From Arcobacter porcinus (GTDB lineage: Bacteria > Campylobacterota > Campylobacteria > Campylobacterales > Arcobacteraceae), in the NCBI RefSeq assembly GCF_004299785.2, contig NZ_CP036246.2, positions 1,550,001 to 1,614,000 on the forward strand: a DNA stretch of 64,000 bases. Direction: 5' to 3'. A model generated the notes under the pieces. It was not told where the DNA came from, made no database searches, and was given only the letters and a program-made list of their open reading frames with translations. Position numbers and translations under genes: made by a program. Positions 2,046-63,942 of this stretch are shown here, in pieces. Numbering within the stretch: the stretch's first letter is position 1; each line of letters begins with the position of its first letter.

Positions 2046-4022
2046 TTATATATCAAGTTCTCTCAAAATTTGAAAGTTATATTTTGTATTCATTCTTTCT
2101 TTTAAAATAGCATATCCCTCTTCTATTCCAAAATCTAAATTTTCAATTAATTCTTTTGCTCTTAGAATTTCGATTGGTTCTCTGAAATAGTGATGAATAG
2201 TTATATCTTTGTGTAGGTCTTTGGTTGTATGTCCTATTAACTGTTTTAATTGTAAAAGCTTATTTGTATTATCATTTTCTCCATTCAAAAATTTACCTAC
2301 AAAATATGCTCTTAAATCATGAAATGCTGGGAGTTTATAATCTTCATATATATCAGCATAATTATTTTTTATATATGTTTTTACATCTTTATTAAAAGAG
2401 AGTGGAAAATCTTTTCTATCTCCATCTTTATTTATTTTTAAATCAAAGATAAAATCTGCTTTATTATCTATCCTATCTTGGACAAAATTTAAAAATCCCA
2501 AATCTATCAAAAAATTAGTTATTGGAATGGTTCGGCTTGAGTGTTCATTTTTTAGGCTTTGCTTTTCTTTATCTGTAATTCTAAGAGTTAAAGAGTGTAT
2601 AAGTTCATCATTTACAATACTCTTTTTAAAATCTTTAACCCTAATTTGTGCTAGTTCTCCACCTCTAGCACCCGTAAAAATTGCTAAAATAACACTCCAA
2701 AAGATGTGAGGCGAAGCTTTAGTATGTCTTGTAAAATTTCGTTCAGCTTGTCCTCTGTCATTTTCTTCTTTTTTATATCTATCTTTTAAAAAGTTATTTA
2801 AAATTTCAGATGATAGATATGTTTTTTTATTTTTATCTGTTAAAATTTGGGCTTCAAGTGTTAAATCTTTATATTCAACACTTAATTTATCCCATAACTC
2901 TAAGTTTAATTTTCCGTATTTTTCAGGGTCATAAAGTTTTATATCTTTTAAAAACCTTTTTATTGTTTTTATCTTTCCTTGTAAGCCTGATAAAATGGGT
3001 TTTTTGTATTTTTCAACATCATTTTTTGTAAAATTTATAATATAAATCATTCCCTTTTCTCGCCAATTTGTCAAATCTTGATGTTGAACAACTGGAATTT
3101 GTGTATATAATTTTTTTAAAGCTTCTATATCTTCTAATCTACAATCCATAATTTTTCGTTTTGGAACTCCAAACTTTTCATCTCCTAACATCAAAGAGCA
3201 AAACTGTTGTAAATCTGTTCTATTTCCCCGTATGCTATTTACTTGTGTTTTTTGATTTTTGTAAGATAAAAATTTTTCTATTAAAAAATCCCAGTTATCT
3301 TCATCATTTTTTGGATATATAATATTTCTAAGTTGTGGATATTGAGTGATAAAATCTTCTATACTTCCAAGATTTGCTGAACTCTCTTTTTTACCCATTA
3401 ATTTTTGGTATTTTTTAATATCTGCTCTTATTACTTCTATCTCTTTTTTAACTAAATTTTCGGCAAAAAGAGGCAACATATCATCAGTGATTTTTTCAAT
3501 TTCATCAGGTTTTATAATATCTTGTCTTTTTAAAATATCATCAGCTTTTTTCCTATAAAGCCCTATATTATCTTTATTAAAAGCTTCTTCTAATTCTGAT
3601 AATTCTTTTTTTAAAGCTGTTTCAGTATGTCCACCAAACTTAACTCCTAAATCATCATAATAAGCCAAAGCTTCATATCTTTTATTTTCAATATCTGCTC
3701 TACGGCTTCCCATGTCTTTTATATAGTGATTATCTTGATTTAAAGCTTCATTTTCATATCTTTGTAATAGACCTATTACATACTCGTTCAACTCTTTCAA
3801 AGTTAAGTTCTCCCTAGTTAAAAATAACAGTTCTATTTTATTATCTATGTAAGATATTATAAAAAAAAGTGAACTATTGAATAAGTGCTTATAATAACCT
3901 TTTTTTGATAATAATTTCATAAGTGAAATTCTGAATATTGGAGTTTTTTTATTTAGCTCATATGGTATCTTTTTTCTAAAATACCACACCCCGTTTTTTT
4001 GAAAGCAAGATTTAGTTTTCAA
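2046..4022 (-). CDS. tyrosine recombinase / integrase (DUF6538-type N-terminus)
   Basis: This 658-aa site-specific recombinase probably excises and integrates the island on its left. The N-terminus has the FxKNGVWYFRKKIP pattern of the DUF6538 integrases. The C-terminal catalytic domain shows the conserved Arg in TGARGGELAQIRV (about 452), HDLR (about 568), the LIGH histidine, and the nucleophile Tyr in HHYF (about 611), so it looks intact. The start is TTG at 4022, preceded by AAGGA with 7-nt spacing; the next Met is residue 35, after the family N-terminus, so TTG is preferred. The long middle region (about 150-420) is probably the arm- and core-binding part. No tRNA gene lies at this border. 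Confidence 0.9.
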   Translation of the reverse strand: MKTKSCFQKNGVWYFRKKIPYELNKKTPIFRISLMKLLSKKGYYKHLFNSSLFFIISYIDNKIELLFLTRENLTLKELNEYVIGLLQRYENEALNQDNHYIKDMGSRRADIENKRYEALAYYDDLGVKFGGHTETALKKELSELEEAFNKDNIGLYRKKADDILKRQDIIKPDEIEKITDDMLPLFAENLVKKEIEVIRADIKKYQKLMGKKESSANLGSIEDFITQYPQLRNIIYPKNDEDNWDFLIEKFLSYKNQKTQVNSIRGNRTDLQQFCSLMLGDEKFGVPKRKIMDCRLEDIEALKKLYTQIPVVQHQDLTNWREKGMIYIINFTKNDVEKYKKPILSGLQGKIKTIKRFLKDIKLYDPEKYGKLNLELWDKLSVEYKDLTLEAQILTDKNKKTYLSSEILNNFLKDRYKKEENDRGQAERNFTRHTKASPHIFWSVILAIFTGARGGELAQIRVKDFKKSIVNDELIHSLTLRITDKEKQSLKNEHSSRTIPITNFLIDLGFLNFVQDRIDNKADFIFDLKINKDGDRKDFPLSFNKDVKTYIKNNYADIYEDYKLPAFHDLRAYFVGKFLNGENDNTNKLLQLKQLIGHTTKDLHKDITIHHYFREPIEILRAKELIENLDFGIEEGYAILKERMNTKYNFQILRELDI

Positions 4023-55437: not shown

Positions 55438-56232
55438 TTATTTTTTTAATAATTTTACAATTGCTAAAGCAACAACACTAATCATAACAATACTTGCACC
55501 TGAACTTATATCATATAGATATGATATAGCTAATCCACTTAAAGTAAATATTGTAGCTAAAACTGAACTAAGAATCATCATAGTAGATAATTTATTAGAA
55601 AAAGCTTCTGCAAGATATGTAGGAATTGTAAGAAGTGCAATAACAAGTATTAATCCTACTGCTTTTATTGCTGCAACTACACAAAGAGCTGATAATATAA
55701 GAATTAATGTATAAAAAAACTTAACATTTATTCCTCTTAAATATGCAAACTCACTATCATATGAAACTGCTAAAATCTCTTTATAAAATATTGCAATAAT
55801 AGCTATGATAAATATATCAAGTGCTATCATATAATATAAATCATTTGATGAAACTGCAATAATACTTCCAAATAAATAACTCATCAAATCAACATTATAT
55901 CCAGGTGTAAGGTCAATAAATACTATTCCTACTGCCATTCCACTTGCCCACATCATTCCAATAATTGCATCAACTCTGCTTCTATTTTTTAAAGTTATGA
56001 TTGCTATTAAAATTGCTGTTAAAATTGCAAAAACAGTTGCTCCAAACAAAACAGGAATTCCTAAAAATATAGCTAATCCTATTCCTCCATAAGCACTATG
56101 TGCTATTCCACCTGTTAAAAAAGTGATTTTGTTTACAACAACTAAACTCCCAATAACACCTGCAGCTATTGAGATTAAAACTCCTGCAATTATTGCATTT
56201 TGTATAAAATCATATTGTAATATCTCTAACAT
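55438..56232 (-). CDS. znuB: zinc/manganese ABC transporter permease (ZnuB type)
   Basis: This 264-aa integral membrane permease of the ABC-3 family has about eight helices. GGIAHSAYGGIGLAIFLGIP, RSRVDAIIGMMWASGMAVGIVFIDLTPGYNVDLMSYLFGSI and IPTYLAEAFSNKL mark the family. It imports zinc (or manganese) with the ATPase 9 bp upstream. The solute-binding ZnuA gene is not in the window. Confidence 0.9.
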   Translation of the reverse strand: MLEILQYDFIQNAIIAGVLISIAAGVIGSLVVVNKITFLTGGIAHSAYGGIGLAIFLGIPVLFGATVFAILTAILIAIITLKNRSRVDAIIGMMWASGMAVGIVFIDLTPGYNVDLMSYLFGSIIAVSSNDLYYMIALDIFIIAIIAIFYKEILAVSYDSEFAYLRGINVKFFYTLILILSALCVVAAIKAVGLILVIALLTIPTYLAEAFSNKLSTMMILSSVLATIFTLSGLAISYLYDISSGASIVMISVVALAIVKLLKK

Positions 56233-56241
56233 CTTTTTACC

Positions 56242-56976
56242 TTAATGATTACAACACATTTGTGTTTTTCCAAGAGCTGATAAAAGCTCAACTTCACATA
56301 GATGATCATCAGTTAAAGTAACATTTTTTTGAAGCTCTTCTAAACTATGATAAACCAAACTTTTATTTATATGTGCAACATCTTTTGCATAGTTTAAAAG
56401 AATTGATAAATCGTGACTTACAACAACTATGCATATTGTTTTATTTAACTCTTTTAAAAGTTCATAAATCTCTTGTTGTCCTTTTACATCAATACTTGCT
56501 GTTGGTTCATCCAAAAGCATTATTTTTGGTTTTGAACAAAGTGCTCTTGCTATAAAAACTCTTTGTCTTTGTCCACCACTTAAGTCTCCAATTTTTGAGT
56601 TAATATGATTTAGCATTCCAACTTGTTCTAGTGATTTCTTTGCACAAGATATTGCCTCTTTTGAGTATCCAAATAATCTTTTTTTAGATGAATTATCTCC
56701 CATTAAAACAATCTCTAAAGCTGTAATAGGGAAATCCATATTTAAATTTGTATTTTGTGGAACATATCCTATTTCATCTGTTCTTATATTTTTTTCTATT
56801 GTTCCTGAATAGTTTGTTAGTAGTCCTAAAATAAGTTTTAGAAGAGTTGATTTTCCTCCACCATTTGGACCAATAATTGCTAGAAAATCATCATCTCTTA
56901 TCTTTAAATTTATATTTTCCAAAACATCTGTTTTTTGATATTTGAAAAACAAATTCTCTATATTTATTAAATTCAC
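56242..56976 (-). CDS. znuC: zinc ABC transporter ATPase (ZnuC type)
   Basis: The 244-aa ATPase has Walker A GPNGGGKST, Q-loop YVPQN, signature LSGGQRQRVFIARAL, Walker B IMLLDEPTASID and VVSHD. The C-terminus MCCNH has Cys and His that may bind zinc. The start is GTG at 56976, with AAAGG 6 nt upstream. A 17-bp palindrome (56990-57006) lies upstream and could be the operator. Confidence 0.9.
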   Translation of the reverse strand: MNLINIENLFFKYQKTDVLENINLKIRDDDFLAIIGPNGGGKSTLLKLILGLLTNYSGTIEKNIRTDEIGYVPQNTNLNMDFPITALEIVLMGDNSSKKRLFGYSKEAISCAKKSLEQVGMLNHINSKIGDLSGGQRQRVFIARALCSKPKIMLLDEPTASIDVKGQQEIYELLKELNKTICIVVVSHDLSILLNYAKDVAHINKSLVYHSLEELQKNVTLTDDHLCEVELLSALGKTQMCCNH

Positions 56977-56989
56977 ATAAAACCTTTAT

Positions 56990-57006
56990 TTGCAACTGTG
57001 TTGCAA
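56990..57006. promoter_or_regulatory. palindrome upstream of znuC
   Basis: TTGCAAC-TGT-GTTGCAA is a perfect 7-bp inverted repeat 14 bp before the znuC start. Its position suggests a metal-sensing repressor site, such as a Zur box, but the sequence is not a known one. Confidence 0.5.
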
Positions 57007-57032
57007 TATTATCAAAATATGAATTAATCTTT

Positions 57033-57791
57033 CTAGATTTTTTCTCTTATATATAGATAAATTATTCCTATATATTCATGAAAAGCTAATTCAACTTTCT
57101 TTATATTTGTTGCATTAAAATATGATGCTGGATAAGAACTTACAAAATATTTATGATTTGTTGGACTTGCAACTATATCTATTCCCTCTTTTTTAAAATA
57201 TATTACTGCTCTTTTCATATGACTGGCACTTGTTACTAAAATAGTTTTTTCATTGTTTACTACTTCTTTTACATATTTTGCTTCTTCTTGTGTATCTTTT
57301 GCTTCATCTAAAGTTATAATATCTTTCTCATCTACTCCTAAAGAAATTGCTAATCTTTTTTGCATTTGTGCATGAGTATTTATATCATCATAGCTATATC
57401 CACTTACAATAATCTTTGGCTCTTTTCCTAAATTCTTTAAATTTATATAGTGTCTTATTCCTTCATTTAATCTATTTATTGCTGTTGTATTAAGTTCTGA
57501 AGTAATAGGATGATTTTCATTTGTTTTATGTCCATTTCCTAAAACTACAATATATTTAGCATCACTTGGAGTAAAAATCAAAGATTCAAAAGCATTCTCT
57601 AAAGGAGATATAATCATATTTGAAGTAGTTTGATTTGATATTAAAGCAAACCATAATATCCCAAAAAATAAAAATAACTTTGCTTTTGTATATGATTTTT
57701 TTAAAATAAAAAATAGAGCTAAAATAAAAATAAAAAAGCCTATTGGAATAGGAAGTAAAAAAGCCGATATAATTTTTTTAAATACAAACAT
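57033..57791 (-). CDS. ElyC/SanA/YdcF-family membrane protein (DUF218)
   Basis: This 252-aa protein has two N-terminal membrane helices and a DUF218 domain (IVVLGNGHKTNENHPITSELNTTAINRLNEGIRHY; KIIVSGYSY; EEAKYVKEVV; LVTSASHMKRAVIYFKKEGIDIVASPTNH). ElyC and SanA proteins affect envelope integrity and peptidoglycan precursors. It is 35 bp downstream of the chemoreceptor gene. Confidence 0.85.
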   Translation of the reverse strand: MFVFKKIISAFLLPIPIGFFIFILALFFILKKSYTKAKLFLFFGILWFALISNQTTSNMIISPLENAFESLIFTPSDAKYIVVLGNGHKTNENHPITSELNTTAINRLNEGIRHYINLKNLGKEPKIIVSGYSYDDINTHAQMQKRLAISLGVDEKDIITLDEAKDTQEEAKYVKEVVNNEKTILVTSASHMKRAVIYFKKEGIDIVASPTNHKYFVSSYPASYFNATNIKKVELAFHEYIGIIYLYIREKI

Positions 57792-57826: not shown

Positions 57827-60400
57827 TTATTCTTGTTTAGCACTCTTTTTTATCTTCTTTGCAACTTTATTATATATCTTATCTATTTTTGATTTTGATG
57901 TAATTTGCAATAGTTCATCAGATAAAGTTGATACTTCATTTGATAAAGAGTCTATTTTTAAAGCTGTTTTTGCATTCTCTTGAGTTGTTAAATCAAGATT
58001 TGAAACGGTGCTATTTATCTGAGAAATTGCTATTTCTTGCTCTTTACTAAATTTTGTAATATTATCTATAATATCTTTTGTTTCTGAGATTTTCAGATCT
58101 AAATTTTCATAACCTTTTATCATCTCATCAGCAATATTTTTACCATCAATCGCTTCTATATTTGCACTCTCAACTAAATTTTTTATCTCTTTTGCTGCAT
58201 CTGCACTTTTTGTTGCAAGGTTTCTTACTTCACCTGCAACAACAGCAAATCCTTTTCCAGCTTCTCCAGCAGTTGCAGCTTCAACAGCCGCATTTAGGCT
58301 TAGAATATTTGTTTGAAATGCAATTTGGTCAATTATAGTAATTGCTTCATTTATTGCATTTACTTTTTTACTTATCTCATCCATTGATACAAAAGTTTGT
58401 TGTGCTGAACTATTTCCAAGTTTTGAAGCACTATTTAACTCATCTGAAATCTCTTTCATCTGAGTCATGTTTTCATTATTTTTAATTAAATTTTGAGTGA
58501 TTTGTTCAAGTGAACTTGAAGTTTGCTGTAAAGATGAAGCTTGATTTGATGAAGATATTGCAAGTTCATTTGATGAATTTGCCAAAATTTTAGTGCTCTC
58601 TTCAAGATTATTTCCTGCACTATTTATCATAGCGATTAAAGAAGATGTTGTTTCTCCTAGAAATGATGTTGATTTATATAAAACTCCAAAATCTCCTTGC
58701 ATATTTGCAACATCTTCATCTTCAAGTTTGAACTTATAATTTCCTTCACTATAATTATTTAGTAAAAGATTTACACCATCAAGCTTTGTTCTTGTACTTT
58801 CAAGCATCTTATTTATAATATTTACTAAAGATTGAAGCTCTTTTGTAGAAGATTTTACATCAATTGAGTGTTCAAAAAAACCTCTATTTACTTTTTCCAT
58901 AATATTAGTAATCTCAACAATGACTTGCTTATCATTTTTACTAATTTTCTCTATTTTTAAAACTTGCTCATTCATATTTTTTGTCATCAAAGCAAATTCA
59001 TCTTTACCTTCAAGTCTATTTAGTTTTATCTCATCTTTCTCTTTCATTGAAAATGAAAAGAATTGATGAAGATTATTTTCAAACTTTTTAATAGATTTTG
59101 TTACATTATTTGTCATAACCATAATTACTATAAATATAAGTAAAATTAATGTGATAATTGATACAAGAAATACAATAATTTGAATATCAAGCTCTTTTAC
59201 ATTTCTATCTATATATAGAAGAGTATCTTTCAAAATTTTATTTTTTATCTCTTCAAATACCAATATTTTCTCATTTGAATTATCATTCCATTTTCTAAGA
59301 TCAGCACCATAAATATTTTTTGATAAAAGTTCAAAAGCTTTTAAAGTTTTATCATCTAGTTCTTTTGTATCTTCCAAAAAAGAGTTAGAAAAAACTTTTT
59401 CCATATAGATATCTATTGCAGATTGGATATCATTTAAAAGCTCTTCTTCCTCTTTTAGATACTCAAGTTTTTTATACTCTCTTATAAATCTTAATATTCT
59501 TGTATGATTTCTTTGAACTTGATTTAATATATTTTCATCATTTGTTAAGATAAAATCTTTGTATGAATGAATCAATCCACCATATCCAAAATACTCTCTC
59601 ATACTATTCACAAGCTCATTTTTCTTTGCTTTTAAAAAAATAACTTCTCTTAATTTATCAATATTTTCAAAAGAAGCATTATTTGTTTTTCTATCATAAT
59701 ACTCTTTTTGATTTTTTGTTAAATTTCTTGTAAACTCAACTGTTTCTGCATCTTGAAAAGTTAGCAAAGATATAAATTTATTATAATCCTCATTTGAGAT
59801 ATGTTGTTGTTTGAATATAACTTTTACTAAATTTTTCTCTTGGTAAAGCTTTTCAACTATACTTATGATTGAAATATATGTTTGAGAAGATTTTAAAAGC
59901 TCTTTACTGTTTGAATAGATTAATAATTCATCAAAAAATGATATTAGATTTAATATTGTTTCATCATAAAAAAGCTCTAAGCTTTTGCTATCAACACTTA
60001 GTTTTAAGCTATCTTCTCTTTTTAAAACTATTTGCTCTAAATTATTTTTCAAAATATCTAGTTTTTCTACAAGATTATTATCATTTTTTACTAAAGCAAA
60101 TTTACTTATAAAATTTTCTAAATCTTTTTGAGATTTTATACTATTTTTTATTTGATTTTCAAAAAGCTCTTTATTTGAACCATAGTTATCAATATATGAG
60201 ATGGCTATTTCTCGCTCTTTTTGAAGATTAGTTAAGAATTTTTGTACTTCTACTGTAAAATTTATATAACTTGATGTTCTATTCATATCTTTTACATTTT
60301 CTAACTTTTCAACAACTAAAATTGTTGTAAACATAAAAATAGCCATCATTGGAAGAACTAAAATTAAAAATATCTTATTTCTTAATTTTAAATTTTTCAT
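57827..60400 (-). CDS. methyl-accepting chemotaxis protein with NIT sensor domain
   Basis: This 857-aa chemoreceptor has a first membrane helix (about 10-30), a large periplasmic NIT-type (nitrate/nitrite-sensing) domain (about 40-390, with [38 protein letters not shown]), a second helix (about 408-430), a HAMP-like part and a cytoplasmic signalling hairpin ([47 protein letters not shown] at about 680-720). The C-terminus is [10 protein letters not shown], without a CheR-binding pentapeptide. The ligand is unknown; nitrate or nitrite is suggested by the domain only. Confidence 0.9.
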
Positions 60401-60535: not shown

Positions 60536-61318
60536 TTAGAAAAATATAGCTGAAGCATATCCTACAACCCTACTTTTATCTCCACTTATATCAGCACTTG
60601 TACAATAGTGTAAAAGTTTTGTTTGAAGATTATTTTTTATAGAGTTCAAAATCATAGCTTCAATTCCTAGCTCTCCACAAGCTTCACATTTTTGAAGTAA
60701 AGCTATATCTTTATTTTGTATTGCATTTAAGCAATTTATATCTAGTTTCATAGCATCATTTTGTGAATAAAAATGACTTAAATCGCTACTAATTACAAGT
60801 AAATTTGAAGAATCTTTTAAAATAGAATCAAAAAGCAACTCCAAATTTTTTGAAGAAATATTACTATAAATAATCTCTACAAACTCAATATTCCCAAAAT
60901 AATACTTCACAAAAGGAGCTTGAACTTCTGTTGAATGTTCAAAAACTGACTCTTCATCAAACTTCAAAAAATCAAATTTTTCTAAAAGCTCTTTACAATA
61001 TTTTAAATCTATATTTAAATTTCCAAAAGGTGTTTCATAGTTGTCATACAAACTAACACTTGCACCATCAAACAAAGCTCTATGCGAAGGTCCAACAACG
61101 ATAACTCTTTTATAAGAGTTTTTACTAGCAAGTTTGAAAGCTTTATTTGCTGTAAATCCACTATAAATATATCCAGCATGTGGAACCAAAATTGCTTTTA
61201 TATTTTCATCTATTTTTTCATCATCTTTTGTTTGATTAAATTTTTCAAAATATAAAAGTAGTTCATCTTTTTTATCAGGATAGAAACTTCCACTTACTAC
61301 ACTTTTTCTTGTGCTCAT
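60536..61318 (-). CDS. MEMO1-family protein (AmmeMemoRadiSam system protein B)
   Basis: This 260-aa protein has the Memo fold: LVPHAGYIYSGFTANKAF, VVGPSHRALFDGASVSLYDNYETPFGNL, FEHSTEVQAPFVKY, LSHFYSQNDAMKLD and LLHYCTSADISGDKSRVVGYASAIF. The two His and one Cys that bind metal in human MEMO1 are kept. It overlaps its AMMECR1-domain partner by 4 bp (ATGA), so they are translated together. The radical SAM member of this trio is not in the window. Confidence 0.9.
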   Translation of the reverse strand: MSTRKSVVSGSFYPDKKDELLLYFEKFNQTKDDEKIDENIKAILVPHAGYIYSGFTANKAFKLASKNSYKRVIVVGPSHRALFDGASVSLYDNYETPFGNLNIDLKYCKELLEKFDFLKFDEESVFEHSTEVQAPFVKYYFGNIEFVEIIYSNISSKNLELLFDSILKDSSNLLVISSDLSHFYSQNDAMKLDINCLNAIQNKDIALLQKCEACGELGIEAMILNSIKNNLQTKLLHYCTSADISGDKSRVVGYASAIFF

Positions 61319-61857
61319 TTTATAATCTCAACTTCATATGTATAAACTTTTGGTCTAAAATTCTCATCTATTTCAAAACTTCCTTTATAGCAAAGCTGTG
61401 CAAAAAAATCTTCAAACTTTGGAAGCATCTGCCAAACTTGTGGCAAAAATGTACTTCTTCTTCCATCAAATTCTAAAATAACTCCGTGAATATTTGGAAT
61501 TAATTTCTCTTTTAAATCATCAAAATCTTTATAAATTAGCTCTTTCGGATGAGATAAAATTGATAGTTCTATTTCACACTCTTTAAACTCTGTTTCACTA
61601 AGTTCAAAAAATCTTGGGTCTTCAAAAGCTGCCATATATGAGTTTGAAAGTAAATCATCTAGCAAACTTTTTGTAGCAATTAAGCTTCCAATACATCCTC
61701 TTAATTTTCCATCTTTGTTTATTGTTACAAAACTTGCTCTTTTTTCACTCAAAAATGGATATTTTTGTTTTAAAAGAATCTTATCTATCTCTATGTTTTT
61801 ATCAAATTTTTGTAGTATTGATTTTCTTGCTAAATCTAAAAGTAGTCTCTTATCCAT
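61315..61857 (-). CDS. AMMECR1-domain protein (AmmeMemoRadiSam system protein A)
   Basis: This 180-aa protein has the AMMECR1 domain: FVTINKDGKLRGCIGSLIATKSLLDDLLSNSYMAAFEDPRF, the LRGCIG hallmark, ELSILSHPKELIYKD, GVILEFDGRRSTFLPQVW. The Cys in RGCIG is conserved. Its function with the Memo protein is not established; a modified amino acid or redox role has been suggested from the trio. It is divergent from cobA. Confidence 0.9.
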   Translation of the reverse strand: MDKRLLLDLARKSILQKFDKNIEIDKILLKQKYPFLSEKRASFVTINKDGKLRGCIGSLIATKSLLDDLLSNSYMAAFEDPRFFELSETEFKECEIELSILSHPKELIYKDFDDLKEKLIPNIHGVILEFDGRRSTFLPQVWQMLPKFEDFFAQLCYKGSFEIDENFRPKVYTYEVEIIK

Positions 61858-61983: not shown

Positions 61984-62715
61984 ATGAGCAAAGTTTACCT
62001 AACAGGTGCAGGTCCTGGAGATATTGAACTTCTTACACTAAAAGCTTCAAGAGTTATAAAAGAGGCTGATATAATAATTTATGATAATTTAGTAAATAAA
62101 GAGATTTTAGATTTGGCGAAAAAAGATGCTATTTTGCTCTTTGTAGGAAAAGAGTTTGGAAATCACTCAATACCACAAGAAAAAATAAATGAGATAATCT
62201 ATCAAGCATCTTTAAAATATGAAAATATTGTAAGGCTAAAAGGTGGAGATCCTTTTGTTTTTGGGCGAGGTGGAGAAGAAGCTCTTTATTTAAAAAAAAG
62301 AGATGTAGCTTTTGAGATAATTCCAGGAATTACTTCAAGCATAAGTGTTCCTGCATATGCTGGAATTCCTGTGACAAATAGAGGTGTTTCTTGCTCTTTT
62401 AAAGTTGTAACAGGTCATGAATCAGCAGATAAAAACTGCTCACAAATAAACTGGAAAAGCTTTTTAGATGATGAAACAATAGTTTTCTTGATGGGAATGC
62501 ACAACTTAAATCTAATCTCAAAAAATCTTATAGATGCTGGAAAAGATAAGAATACAGCTTGTGCAGTTATTTCAAAAGGAACAACAAAAGAGCAAAAAGT
62601 AGTTGTGGCTACTTTGGAAGATATTTACAAAAAAGCAAAAGATTTGCCAACTCCTGCGATTATTGTTGTGGGCGAAGTTGTAAAACTAAGAGATGAGCTA
62701 AATTGGTTTTTATAA
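61984..62715 (+). CDS. cobA: uroporphyrinogen-III C-methyltransferase
   Basis: CobA (SUMT) methylates uroporphyrinogen III twice to precorrin-2 for siroheme or cobalamin. The 243-aa protein has VYLTGAGPGDIELLTLKA, YDNLVNKEIL, IVRLKGGDPFVFGRGGEEA, IPGITSSISVPAYAGIPVTNRG and DLPTPAIIVVGEVV. It has no CysG N-terminal domain. Its end overlaps the convergent hsdS gene by 6 bp. Confidence 0.95.
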   Translation: MSKVYLTGAGPGDIELLTLKASRVIKEADIIIYDNLVNKEILDLAKKDAILLFVGKEFGNHSIPQEKINEIIYQASLKYENIVRLKGGDPFVFGRGGEEALYLKKRDVAFEIIPGITSSISVPAYAGIPVTNRGVSCSFKVVTGHESADKNCSQINWKSFLDDETIVFLMGMHNLNLISKNLIDAGKDKNTACAVISKGTTKEQKVVVATLEDIYKKAKDLPTPAIIVVGEVVKLRDELNWFL

Positions 62716-63942
62716 CTCACCTTTAAATGCTTTGTCTAAAATAGAGGCTTTTAAAGCTTTTAAGCTTTGCATTTTCTCTTTTTGAAGATTTTTGATTTTT
62801 TCCATTTTGTTTGAAATTTCATCTAGGTATGAAACTACTTTTTGTTGGATTTGGAGTGGGGGAATAACTACATCAATTTCTTTTAATGTTTTATAATAAA
62901 TTGCAGCAACATTTGTAGTAGCAGATTTAATGTTTTCCAATTGTTCTTTTAGATAATTACAACCAAATTGATATGAAACAAAATAAGAAGATATATCATC
63001 TCTAAATCTGACTCTCATAATGTTGTTATTATATAAAATATTTTTCATATCATAATCAAATATACAACTTTTACCTACTAATTCAGCACTATTTCGAGTA
63101 TTGAAAAGGAAGTCCCCTTTCTCTAAATTGAATTTTCTAACCTCTTCATCTGTTGCATCTACATTAATTATATTATCAAATGTAAATCTATTATTATTTG
63201 TAATATTATTCATTTTAACATATTGATATTGTAAAGATGGTGATTGCTCTTTTACACTTCTAACCAATCCTATTACATTTGATGTTTTTATTTCATCAAA
63301 TTTTTCTTTATTATACTTTTCTTCCAACTCTCCAAAAACATCATTTAAAACACTTGCCATAAAAATATCTGCTTCATCAATATTTTTTTGATGTAAATCT
63401 ATGGCTTTATCGATTTTGGCAAATAAAATATCCAACTTAGCCACAATTCTTTTTTGTTCTTCAAGTGATGGAAGAGGAATTGATAATTCCTTAATTGTTT
63501 TTAATACAATTCTTTTTATTGCGGCACCAGTTTTATTTTTAATTGCATTATTATAAAAATATGGACTCAATAAATAGTTTTTCAAATATTCAGATGATAT
63601 ATTTTCTGCTGGTTTTAAAATAGCTAAAGATGATAGTACAACAAAATCTATATCATAATTTACTAATGCAACTTTTCCTACTGTTCCATCTTTAGAAAAA
63701 AGAACATCTCCTTTATTAGGTTTACAGTTACCTTTAACTAATAAATCAAAATCTTCATTTGAAATAAATTTACAATCTTTAAAATTGATAATTCCATCAT
63801 CATTTACATCTTTAACTGTAATGTAAGGTTTTCCACTTTCAATAGTTTTTGGTGATTTGTGAGCACCATCTGTGACTTTATTACAGACATCATTTATAGT
63901 TCTCCACTCCCACCCTTTAGGCAAACTGTATAATTCACTCAT
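62710..63942 (-). CDS. hsdS: type I restriction-modification specificity subunit HsdS
   Basis: HsdS (410 aa) recognises the DNA target for HsdM and HsdR. It has two target-recognition domains, each followed by a conserved coiled-coil spacer: first LPSLEEQKRIVAKLDILFAKIDKAIDL (about 160-185), second IPPLQIQQKVVSYLDEISNKMEKIKNLQ (about 365-390), ending in KALKASILDKAFKGEL. Its ATG overlaps the upstream gene's TGA by 8 bp, indicating coupling. Specificity is set by the two variable domains and cannot be predicted. Confidence 0.93.
   Translation of the reverse strand: MSELYSLPKGWEWRTINDVCNKVTDGAHKSPKTIESGKPYITVKDVNDDGIINFKDCKFISNEDFDLLVKGNCKPNKGDVLFSKDGTVGKVALVNYDIDFVVLSSLAILKPAENISSEYLKNYLLSPYFYNNAIKNKTGAAIKRIVLKTIKELSIPLPSLEEQKRIVAKLDILFAKIDKAIDLHQKNIDEADIFMASVLNDVFGELEEKYNKEKFDEIKTSNVIGLVRSVKEQSPSLQYQYVKMNNITNNNRFTFDNIINVDATDEEVRKFNLEKGDFLFNTRNSAELVGKSCIFDYDMKNILYNNNIMRVRFRDDISSYFVSYQFGCNYLKEQLENIKSATTNVAAIYYKTLKEIDVVIPPLQIQQKVVSYLDEISNKMEKIKNLQKEKMQSLKALKASILDKAFKGEL

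What the first reader, a model, noticed from the sequence alone, without database searches (positions are those of the whole stretch)
60536..61857. Memo and AMMECR1 pair of the poorly understood AmmeMemoRadiSam system
The genes overlap (ATGA) and keep the Memo metal ligands and AMMECR1 LRGCIG Cys, but the radical SAM partner is not here. The system's biochemical role is not established; in this genome it would be split or reduced to two parts.
Basis: partly seen in the sequence, partly recalled or inferred. Interest (0 to 1): 0.5.

Follow-up and report, generated by a model that had tools for sequence, protein, structure and literature searches.

The report
Memo–AMMECR1 pair lacking its radical partner
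This bacterium keeps two well-preserved genes of a poorly understood three-gene system, relatives of the human proteins MEMO1 and AMMECR1, but lacks the third gene, so it offers a simple place to ask what the pair does alone.

Summary
Window 60536-61318 (-) is a Memo protein and 61315-61857 (-) an AMMECR1 protein, with an ATGA overlap. The complete 2.02 Mb genome has no radical-SAM member (TIGR04337). The pair is a reduced form of an ordinary trio: in the same family (Arcobacteraceae) many genomes have AMMECR1-rS-Memo, or AMMECR1 plus an rS-Memo fusion, at one locus. Of 71 family genomes with Memo, 22 lack an intact rS; 11 of these are near-closed assemblies. The rS state changed at least five times. 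Junctions fit excision between AAATGA repeats; one lineage probably keeps a remnant of the rS tail. Elsewhere complete absence of rS is uncommon: 1 of 60 (rest of phylum sample), 6 of 80 (another phylum, multi-contig assemblies). Where rS is gone, Memo and AMMECR1 stay under purifying selection and keep their candidate active-site residues. I infer a working module with rS as accessory, as I recall for eukaryotes. The substrate is unknown. 'Memo metal ligands kept' is partly right: two His are kept, but human Cys244 is Ile here. An oxygen explanation found no support. New variant of a known system, moderate interest.

The parts
60536..61318 (-). Memo-family protein, 260 aa (AmmeMemoSam_B). H47, H79, H128, E131, D179, H182 and C214 are near-invariant polar residues; I244 stands where human MEMO1 has Cys244
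61315..61857 (-). AMMECR1-family protein, 180 aa (AmmeMemoSam_A), with LRGCIG; GGAG lies 4 bases upstream of its ATG
61315..61318 (-). ATGA overlap of AMMECR1 stop and Memo start: the place where rS sits in trio-bearing relatives
61984..62715 (+). divergent neighbour: uroporphyrinogen-III C-methyltransferase (294.7 bits to TIGR01469). Context only; shared with G236 and G126
57827..60400 (-). methyl-accepting chemotaxis protein downstream of Memo (context only; shared with G236 and G126)
55438..57791 (-). DUF218 protein, ABC ATPase and ABC-3 permease genes: the block that commonly follows Memo at the family locus, still downstream here

Best explanation
It is a two-part remnant of the AmmeMemoRadiSam system that still works as a unit. 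Shown by comparison: in Arcobacteraceae one locus, hemH-AMMECR1-[rS]-Memo-DUF218-ABC, is found with rS, with an rS-Memo fusion and without rS; the rS state changed several times; where rS is absent both remaining proteins keep their candidate active-site residues and are under purifying selection. Supported but not proven: rS was lost from a trio, in the genus by a small deletion between the two AAATGA overlap sites, which would leave AMMECR1 and Memo overlapping by ATGA. Inferred: the two are made together by translational coupling and act together, Memo as a metal-dependent enzyme of the LigB-type fold and AMMECR1 as a partner that supplies the conserved cysteine, on a substrate that does not strictly need rS. 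rS would be an accessory step (an earlier or extra modification, or activation) that these lineages can do without. Not shown: the metal, the substrate, the reaction, or physical contact of the two proteins in this organism.
For: No rS in the complete own genome. Nested presence: phylum sample of 249: AMMECR1 71, Memo 70, rS over cut-off 63; all 63 rS genomes have Memo and 69 of 70 Memo genomes have AMMECR1. Family of 104: AMMECR1 76 over cut-off, Memo 71, rS 47 over cut-off plus two partial beside Memo. Same locus with and without rS. At least 5 changes of the rS state at the locus on the AMMECR1+Memo tree and 7 on a flank-gene tree; one clade of all 21 rS-less rows rejected, p-AU 1.8e-9, and one clade of 11 of them (10 of the genus's 11, G260 left out, plus G321) rejected, p-AU 0.002. 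ATGA junctions and a probable rS-tail remnant in G250/G254. Residues: Memo H47, H79, H128, E131, D179, H182, C214 in 21 of 21 rS-less rows; AMMECR1 LRGCIG in 19 of 19. dN/dS in 10 rS-less pairs (one member, G336, has an unlinked rS): AMMECR1 0.08-0.23, Memo 0.09-0.29. Memo-AMMECR1 fusions in 6 of 80 loci and in G009, one of them (L242) in a genome without a rS match.
Against: 13 of 31 genomes of the genus have neither gene by these searches (9 of the 13 at least 99% complete), so the pair may itself be on its way out. Memo dN/dS is somewhat higher without rS (median 0.17 against 0.118; 10 against 7 pairs, p 0.26). rS-Memo fusions (16 family loci) show that rS and Memo normally act closely together. 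A more distant radical SAM enzyme could stand in for rS; only TIGR04337 was searched. Six family genomes have AMMECR1 without Memo (three of them incomplete), so AMMECR1 may have a role of its own. In genus g69 the joint is not an ATGA overlap (0 or 1 base in the three read), so the deletion model does not cover all lineages.
Confidence: 0.68

Rival explanations
1. Decay intermediate: with rS gone the pathway is dead, and AMMECR1 and Memo are leftovers not yet lost.
For: 13 of 31 genus genomes have neither gene. rS-less genus members have smaller genomes (median 2.1 against 3.0 Mb, 11 against 7, p 0.001, not corrected for kinship). Where AMMECR1 is alone, G206 has lost the LRGC cysteine and keeps 29 of 33 conserved positions.
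Against: Conserved residues and low dN/dS in several rS-less lineages; ATGA overlap intact in 14 of 17 rS-less joints printed; the state is seen in 11 near-closed genomes.
Confidence: 0.15
2. Replacement in trans: another radical SAM enzyme of the genome does the job of rS, so the trio works with a substitute.
For: Three split relatives keep an operon-type rS elsewhere, so linkage is not needed. Some other Campylobacterota have an AMMECR1-Memo pair and an unlinked rS of another clade.
Against: Nothing in the own genome matches TIGR04337 at E 0.001, although the model gives weak matches in controls such as E. coli. No candidate was identified, but other radical SAM families were not searched.
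Confidence: 0.12
3. The pair is the older state, and rS was inserted between the genes in trio-bearing relatives.
For: In the AMMECR1+Memo tree the six trio species of the genus stand within a 26-row group of otherwise rS-less or split rows; parsimony does not orient the change.
Against: All three genes lie together in 53 of 80 loci from several groups, and 74 of 80 Memo genomes of another phylum have rS. Family rS genes, apart from G290's, fall together with three other Campylobacterota genes in one supported group. G250/G254 carry what looks like the rS 3' end.
Confidence: 0.05
4. Oxygen: the oxygen-sensitive rS was lost because these bacteria tolerate air.
For: AMMECR1 is the first of the anaerobe rows in a table of oxygen predictors (PMC13386939, one passage seen). 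The genus is perhaps Aliarcobacter, a name that goes with 'aerotolerant' in 23 held papers (search listing only).
Against: NrdD, another oxygen-sensitive radical enzyme, is found at E 0.001 (partial matches included) in 18 of 22 rS-less and 40 of 49 rS-bearing genomes, p 1.0, and in the own genome.
Confidence: 0.1

Closest known systems
AmmeMemoRadiSam system (NCBIfam TIGR04335 / TIGR04336 / TIGR04337)
   Same: Two of its three proteins above cut-off over their length, adjacent, in the order of the family's trio
   Different: The radical SAM protein is absent from the whole genome
Eukaryotic MEMO1 and AMMECR1 (pair without a radical SAM partner: recalled, not tested)
   Same: Memo fold (Z 32.3 to human MEMO1, 2.0 A over 254 residues); His49 and His81 kept; the pair without rS
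   Different: Here the genes are adjacent and overlapping; the third human iron ligand Cys244 is Ile244
Memo-AMMECR1 fusion proteins (G009, L254, L272, L278, L290, L295; AMMECR1-Memo in L242)
   Same: The two partners coupled one to one
   Different: One polypeptide; rS was seen in the same locus for L254, L272, L278, L290 and L295, but had no match in the L242 genome
Class III extradiol dioxygenases (LigB, DesB, aminophenol and DOPA dioxygenases)
   Same: Same fold (Z 13.4-17.4); two His ligands in register (PMC11081632, passage seen)
   Different: The Glu ligand is not conserved as such; that paper reports no dioxygenase activity found for human MEMO1

Membership tests
AmmeMemoRadiSam system | AMMECR1-type protein A (TIGR04335) | tested here: met
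   166.8 bits, cut-off 99
AmmeMemoRadiSam system | Memo-type protein B (TIGR04336) | tested here: met
   239.8 bits, cut-off 26
AmmeMemoRadiSam system | radical SAM protein (TIGR04337) in the genome | tested here: not met
   0 matches at E 0.001 in the complete genome
AmmeMemoRadiSam system | genes adjacent | tested here: met
   A and B overlap by 4 bases
Memo family | Memo domain and fold | tested here: met
   PF01875 173.2 bits; model pLDDT 96.6, Z 32.3 to MEMO1
Memo family, human-type metal site | His49, His81 and Cys244 equivalents | tested here: not met
   H47 and H79 present, Cys244 is I244
Class III extradiol dioxygenase | 2-His-1-carboxylate iron site | tested here: inconclusive
   two His; the neighbouring D243 is Asp or Glu in 18 of 21 rS-less rows, Asp in 30 of 35 rS-bearing and 26 of 31 other rows
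Class III extradiol dioxygenase | ring-opening activity | not testable with these tools
   needs biochemistry
AMMECR1 family | LRGCIG motif and domain | tested here: met
   PF01871 130.2 bits; motif kept in 19 of 19 rS-less rows
Eukaryotic-type pair | absence of rS in eukaryotes | not tested
   recalled only; no eukaryote genomes on hand

The most novel reading that the evidence does not exclude
Memo and AMMECR1 form a self-sufficient enzyme, conserved from bacteria to people, whose radical SAM partner is an optional extra: first to be lost, before Memo and then AMMECR1. Arcobacteraceae would then be natural rS-knockout strains of a human-type pair, and the neighbours in this family (ferrochelatase, uroporphyrinogen methyltransferase, cytochrome cd1) would hint at iron or tetrapyrrole chemistry, in line with MEMO1 and iron homeostasis.
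Probability: 0.2. Interest if true: 0.75.

Novelty: new variant of a known kind. Interest (0 to 1): 0.42.

Why it matters
The primary molecular function of MEMO1 is described as unknown (PMC11081632, abstract start in the listing), and the bacterial system is named as a trio. A bacterial lineage that repeatedly dropped the radical SAM gene while keeping the other two intact separates the core from the accessory part. It gives matched close relatives with and without rS for metabolite, metal and knockout comparisons, in small genomes and without the eukaryotic signalling background.

Tried and rejected
Oxygen hypothesis: tested with NrdD, no association. Conserved neighbourhood outside the family: clustering of neighbours in 80 loci gave no partner gene shared widely; the two largest clusters (12 and 8 loci) look like ORFs antisense to Memo, AMMECR1 or rS. 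The ferrochelatase link is therefore a family feature as far as seen. Diagnostic residues of rS-less proteins: only three weak columns differ (Memo 20; AMMECR1 135 and 159), perhaps kinship. Asp243 as third metal ligand: conserved but not strictly, left open. A test of Memo-AMMECR1 contact by structure was not possible (single chains only). Name of the organism: not determined; 'Arcobacteraceae' rests on two family contigs whose lengths equal those of Arcobacter MAG records (G299:C33, 39444 bases, L222; G044:C10, 218828 bases, L224); 'Aliarcobacter' is a guess from genome size. Papers: 'AmmeMemoRadiSam' is in 5 held papers, none on Arcobacter by title; 'AMMECR1' with 'radical SAM' in one; 'MEMO1' with 'radical SAM' in one (listing only). 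The study cited in PMC7159879 for Memo-Ammecr1 systems (Burroughs 2019; passage seen) is not held under the DOI that I recalled; I recall that it discusses AMMECR1 and radical SAM contexts and predicts nucleotide-base or isoprenoid modification, so I do not claim that rS-less pairs are unknown.

Limits of the counts: regions were read for 60 of the 71 family genomes with Memo (11 not fetched: G297, G298, G300-G305, G308, G325, G326) plus three with AMMECR1 only. The 80 loci are the best 80 of 588 confirmed stretches, so they lean to relatives of the query. 'rS-bearing' rows are 35 family rows (G311 with its rS fragments included) plus 31 rows of other families, whose rS was not checked row by row. 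A first rS tree took loci on one strand only and lost rows; it was redone and only the second is used. Two scripts stopped with an error after printing their trees; the counts were made, where the flank tree includes the three AMMECR1-only genomes. All trees are the quick kind. G260's AMMECR1 came out short in my ORF list, but the frame is open; the genome is a draft. The dN/dS pairs were chosen by hand among close relatives (22 pairs, one unusable because of N). The remnant test (4 of 5000 shuffles) is post hoc.

Full report
What is there. The Memo protein matches TIGR04336 over its length with 239.8 bits and the AMMECR1 protein TIGR04335 with 166.8 bits; Pfam agrees. They overlap by ATGA at 61315-61318. 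A model of the Memo protein (pLDDT 96.6) is closest to human MEMO1 (Z 32.3, 2.0 A over 254 residues) and next to extradiol dioxygenases and related structures (Z 13.4-17.4) (Foldseek agrees).

Is the third gene elsewhere? No. The genome is one contig of 2,018,219 bases, and TIGR04337 finds nothing at E 0.001. The same model detects the gene readily in relatives: all matches above cut-off in the phylum sample score 330-393 bits.

How usual is that? In 249 Campylobacterota genomes AMMECR1 is in 71, Memo in 70 and rS above its cut-off in 63 (a further 9 genomes have only weak rS matches, which I take for other radical SAM proteins). All 63 rS genomes have Memo. Seven Memo genomes lack rS: five of the window's genus, G121 of the same family, and G195, where Memo and AMMECR1 are interrupted by stops. 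In the family (104 genomes) Memo is in 71 and rS in 47 above cut-off plus two partial matches beside Memo (G284, G288), so 22 of 71 lack an intact rS (one of the 22, G311, has rS fragments, some with stops). Eleven of the 22 are in one or two contigs and at least 99% complete: G000, G008, G121, G126, G236, G250, G254, G255, G270, G321, G331. The other eleven are in 20 or more contigs, and five of these are under 98% complete, so some of their absences may be gaps. In the genus, 18 of 31 genomes have Memo and 11 of these 18 lack rS. Outside the family, 59 of 60 Memo genomes of the phylum sample have rS (Fisher p 4e-6 against 49 of 71). In a sample of another phylum (centred on G349, a betaproteobacterial genome by its record title) 105 of 398 genomes had Memo above cut-off; I tested the first 80 of these 105 and 74 had rS (p 0.0003). 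The six without (G487, G491, G499, G507, G523, G531) are multi-contig assemblies by their contig numbers, so gaps are possible. Of 80 Memo loci found by pattern in genome contigs, 53 had all three genes within about 6 kb, 15 had AMMECR1 and Memo only, 11 Memo and rS only, and one Memo only. So full loss of rS beside an intact pair is uncommon in general and recurrent in this family.

Where did it go? I fetched 100 regions, covering 60 of the 71 family Memo genomes and three with AMMECR1 only, and read gene order. In 45 of these 63 family loci AMMECR1 follows a ferrochelatase-type gene (PF00762 for the one tested). Around this same place 16 loci have AMMECR1-rS-Memo, 10 have AMMECR1 and one rS-Memo protein (in three of them with another gene between), 15 have AMMECR1-Memo without rS in between (three of these genomes have rS elsewhere), three have AMMECR1 alone (G206, G319, G320), and G290 has AMMECR1 and Memo with another gene between. 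Further upstream are commonly a cytochrome c, a P-type ATPase and in 16 loci a cbb3 maturation protein; downstream commonly DUF218, an ABC ATPase and an ABC-3 permease. The window's own lineage has no ferrochelatase in the 12 kb read but keeps DUF218 and the ABC genes downstream. Six trio species of the genus have ATGA overlaps at both joints; in four of the six both joints read AAATGA. Of 17 rS-less joints printed, 14 are ATGA overlaps of 4 bases, as a deletion between the two sites would leave; the three of genus g69 overlap by 0 or 1 base. In G250 and G254 Memo starts with three more codons that resemble the end of rS (alignment and shuffles; post hoc). Trees of AMMECR1+Memo (58 rows) and of flanking genes (45 rows) need at least 5 and 7 changes of rS state at the locus (6 and 9 counted by genome). 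A single rS-less clade is rejected for all 21 rows (p-AU 1.8e-9) and for 11 of them, namely 10 of the genus's 11 (G260 left out) plus G321 (0.002). G275, G333 and G336 have an operon-type rS elsewhere in the genome, so a split stage exists; G290's unlinked rS belongs to a different clade. Gene transfer may also play a part: by AMMECR1+Memo G249 groups with the fused genes of G277 and G328, although its flanks stand within the genus.

Do the two still work? Of 54 Memo positions conserved in at least 95% of 66 reference rows, the candidate active-site residues H47, H79, H128, E131, D179, H182 and C214 are all kept in 21 of 21 rS-less rows; of 33 such AMMECR1 positions, 31 are kept in all 19 rS-less rows, LRGCIG included. 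The number of phylum-invariant positions kept has the same median with and without rS (Memo 47 of 49, AMMECR1 35 of 37); the lowest rows are 42 in both Memo groups, and among rS-less rows the low ones are all of genus g69. dN/dS is 0.08-0.29 in ten rS-less pairs (one member, G336, has an unlinked rS); medians do not differ significantly from rS-bearing pairs (AMMECR1 0.123 against 0.157; Memo 0.17 against 0.118), with a trend to weaker constraint on Memo. By contrast, where Memo is lost as well, one of three AMMECR1 proteins read has lost the motif cysteine (G206). This suggests that the unit is AMMECR1 plus Memo.

Mechanism. Shown: one locus with and without rS, and retention of an intact pair. 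From the families: Memo is a metalloprotein of the extradiol-dioxygenase fold; human MEMO1 binds iron through H49, H81 and C244, and no dioxygenase activity was found with standard substrates (PMC11081632, passages seen). Here the first two ligands are kept and the third is not; no Cys stands at that column in any of the 87 rows counted. The acidic residue beside it (D243) is a candidate but not strictly conserved. Inferred: Memo and AMMECR1 act together on one substrate, rS adds a step that some lineages can drop, and Memo is the hub, since it is found fused to either partner. The substrate is unknown.

Oxygen was the obvious reason for dropping a radical SAM enzyme. In a 2026 table PF01871 is listed as 'Anaerobic' with 3.38, 50.66 and 0.074 (PMC13386939, one passage seen; the column heads were not in it, I take them to be percent of aerobic and anaerobic genomes and importance). 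But NrdD is found in 18 of 22 rS-less and 40 of 49 rS-bearing family genomes, and in the window's genome, so a general turn away from oxygen-sensitive radical enzymes is not seen. Smaller genomes go with rS loss in the genus (sizes rounded as listed), uncorrected for kinship, and not clearly in other genera.

Verdict. The finding is real and correctly read as a reduced system. It is a derived, recurrent two-part variant of a known three-part system, not a new kind. Its use is as a natural experiment.

Noticed in passing
own genome, L299:365-2479 (+) and 2457-2621 (+) (G000:C1 about 900164-902420): The anaerobic ribonucleotide reductase NrdD looks split: a 704-aa ORF matches the profile to position 549 of 581, and an overlapping 54-aa ORF in another frame (23-base overlap) carries an RVMGY stretch and matches positions 549-580, where I recall the glycyl-radical site to be. 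An NrdG2-type activase follows. Separate subunit or programmed frameshift: open.
   Followed up: partly
L120, L142-L149, L151, L161-L163, L166, L167, L169: rS and Memo are fused into one protein of about 590 aa in several Arcobacteraceae genera (16 loci, two of them incomplete).
   Followed up: partly
L191:3718-5166 (-), L242, L254, L272, L278, L290, L295: Memo and AMMECR1 fused in one ORF in several bacteria (AMMECR1 first in L242, Memo first in the others).
   Followed up: partly
L161, L162, L163, L164: A gene of about 610 aa stands between AMMECR1 and rS in four family genomes (cluster c9); in G290 (L150) a 739-aa gene stands between AMMECR1 and Memo. Not identified.
   Followed up: no
L124, L125, L123, L135: In G008, G186, G255 and G270 the pair sits near genes of the clusters whose tested members are a heme-copper oxidase family protein and a cytochrome cd1 protein; in the window it sits beside uroporphyrinogen-III methyltransferase. 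Heme-related settings recur within this family; no shared neighbour was seen outside it.
   Followed up: partly
window 62710-63942 (-): ORF that by eye looks like a type I restriction specificity subunit, next to the divergent methyltransferase gene; not tested.
   Followed up: no
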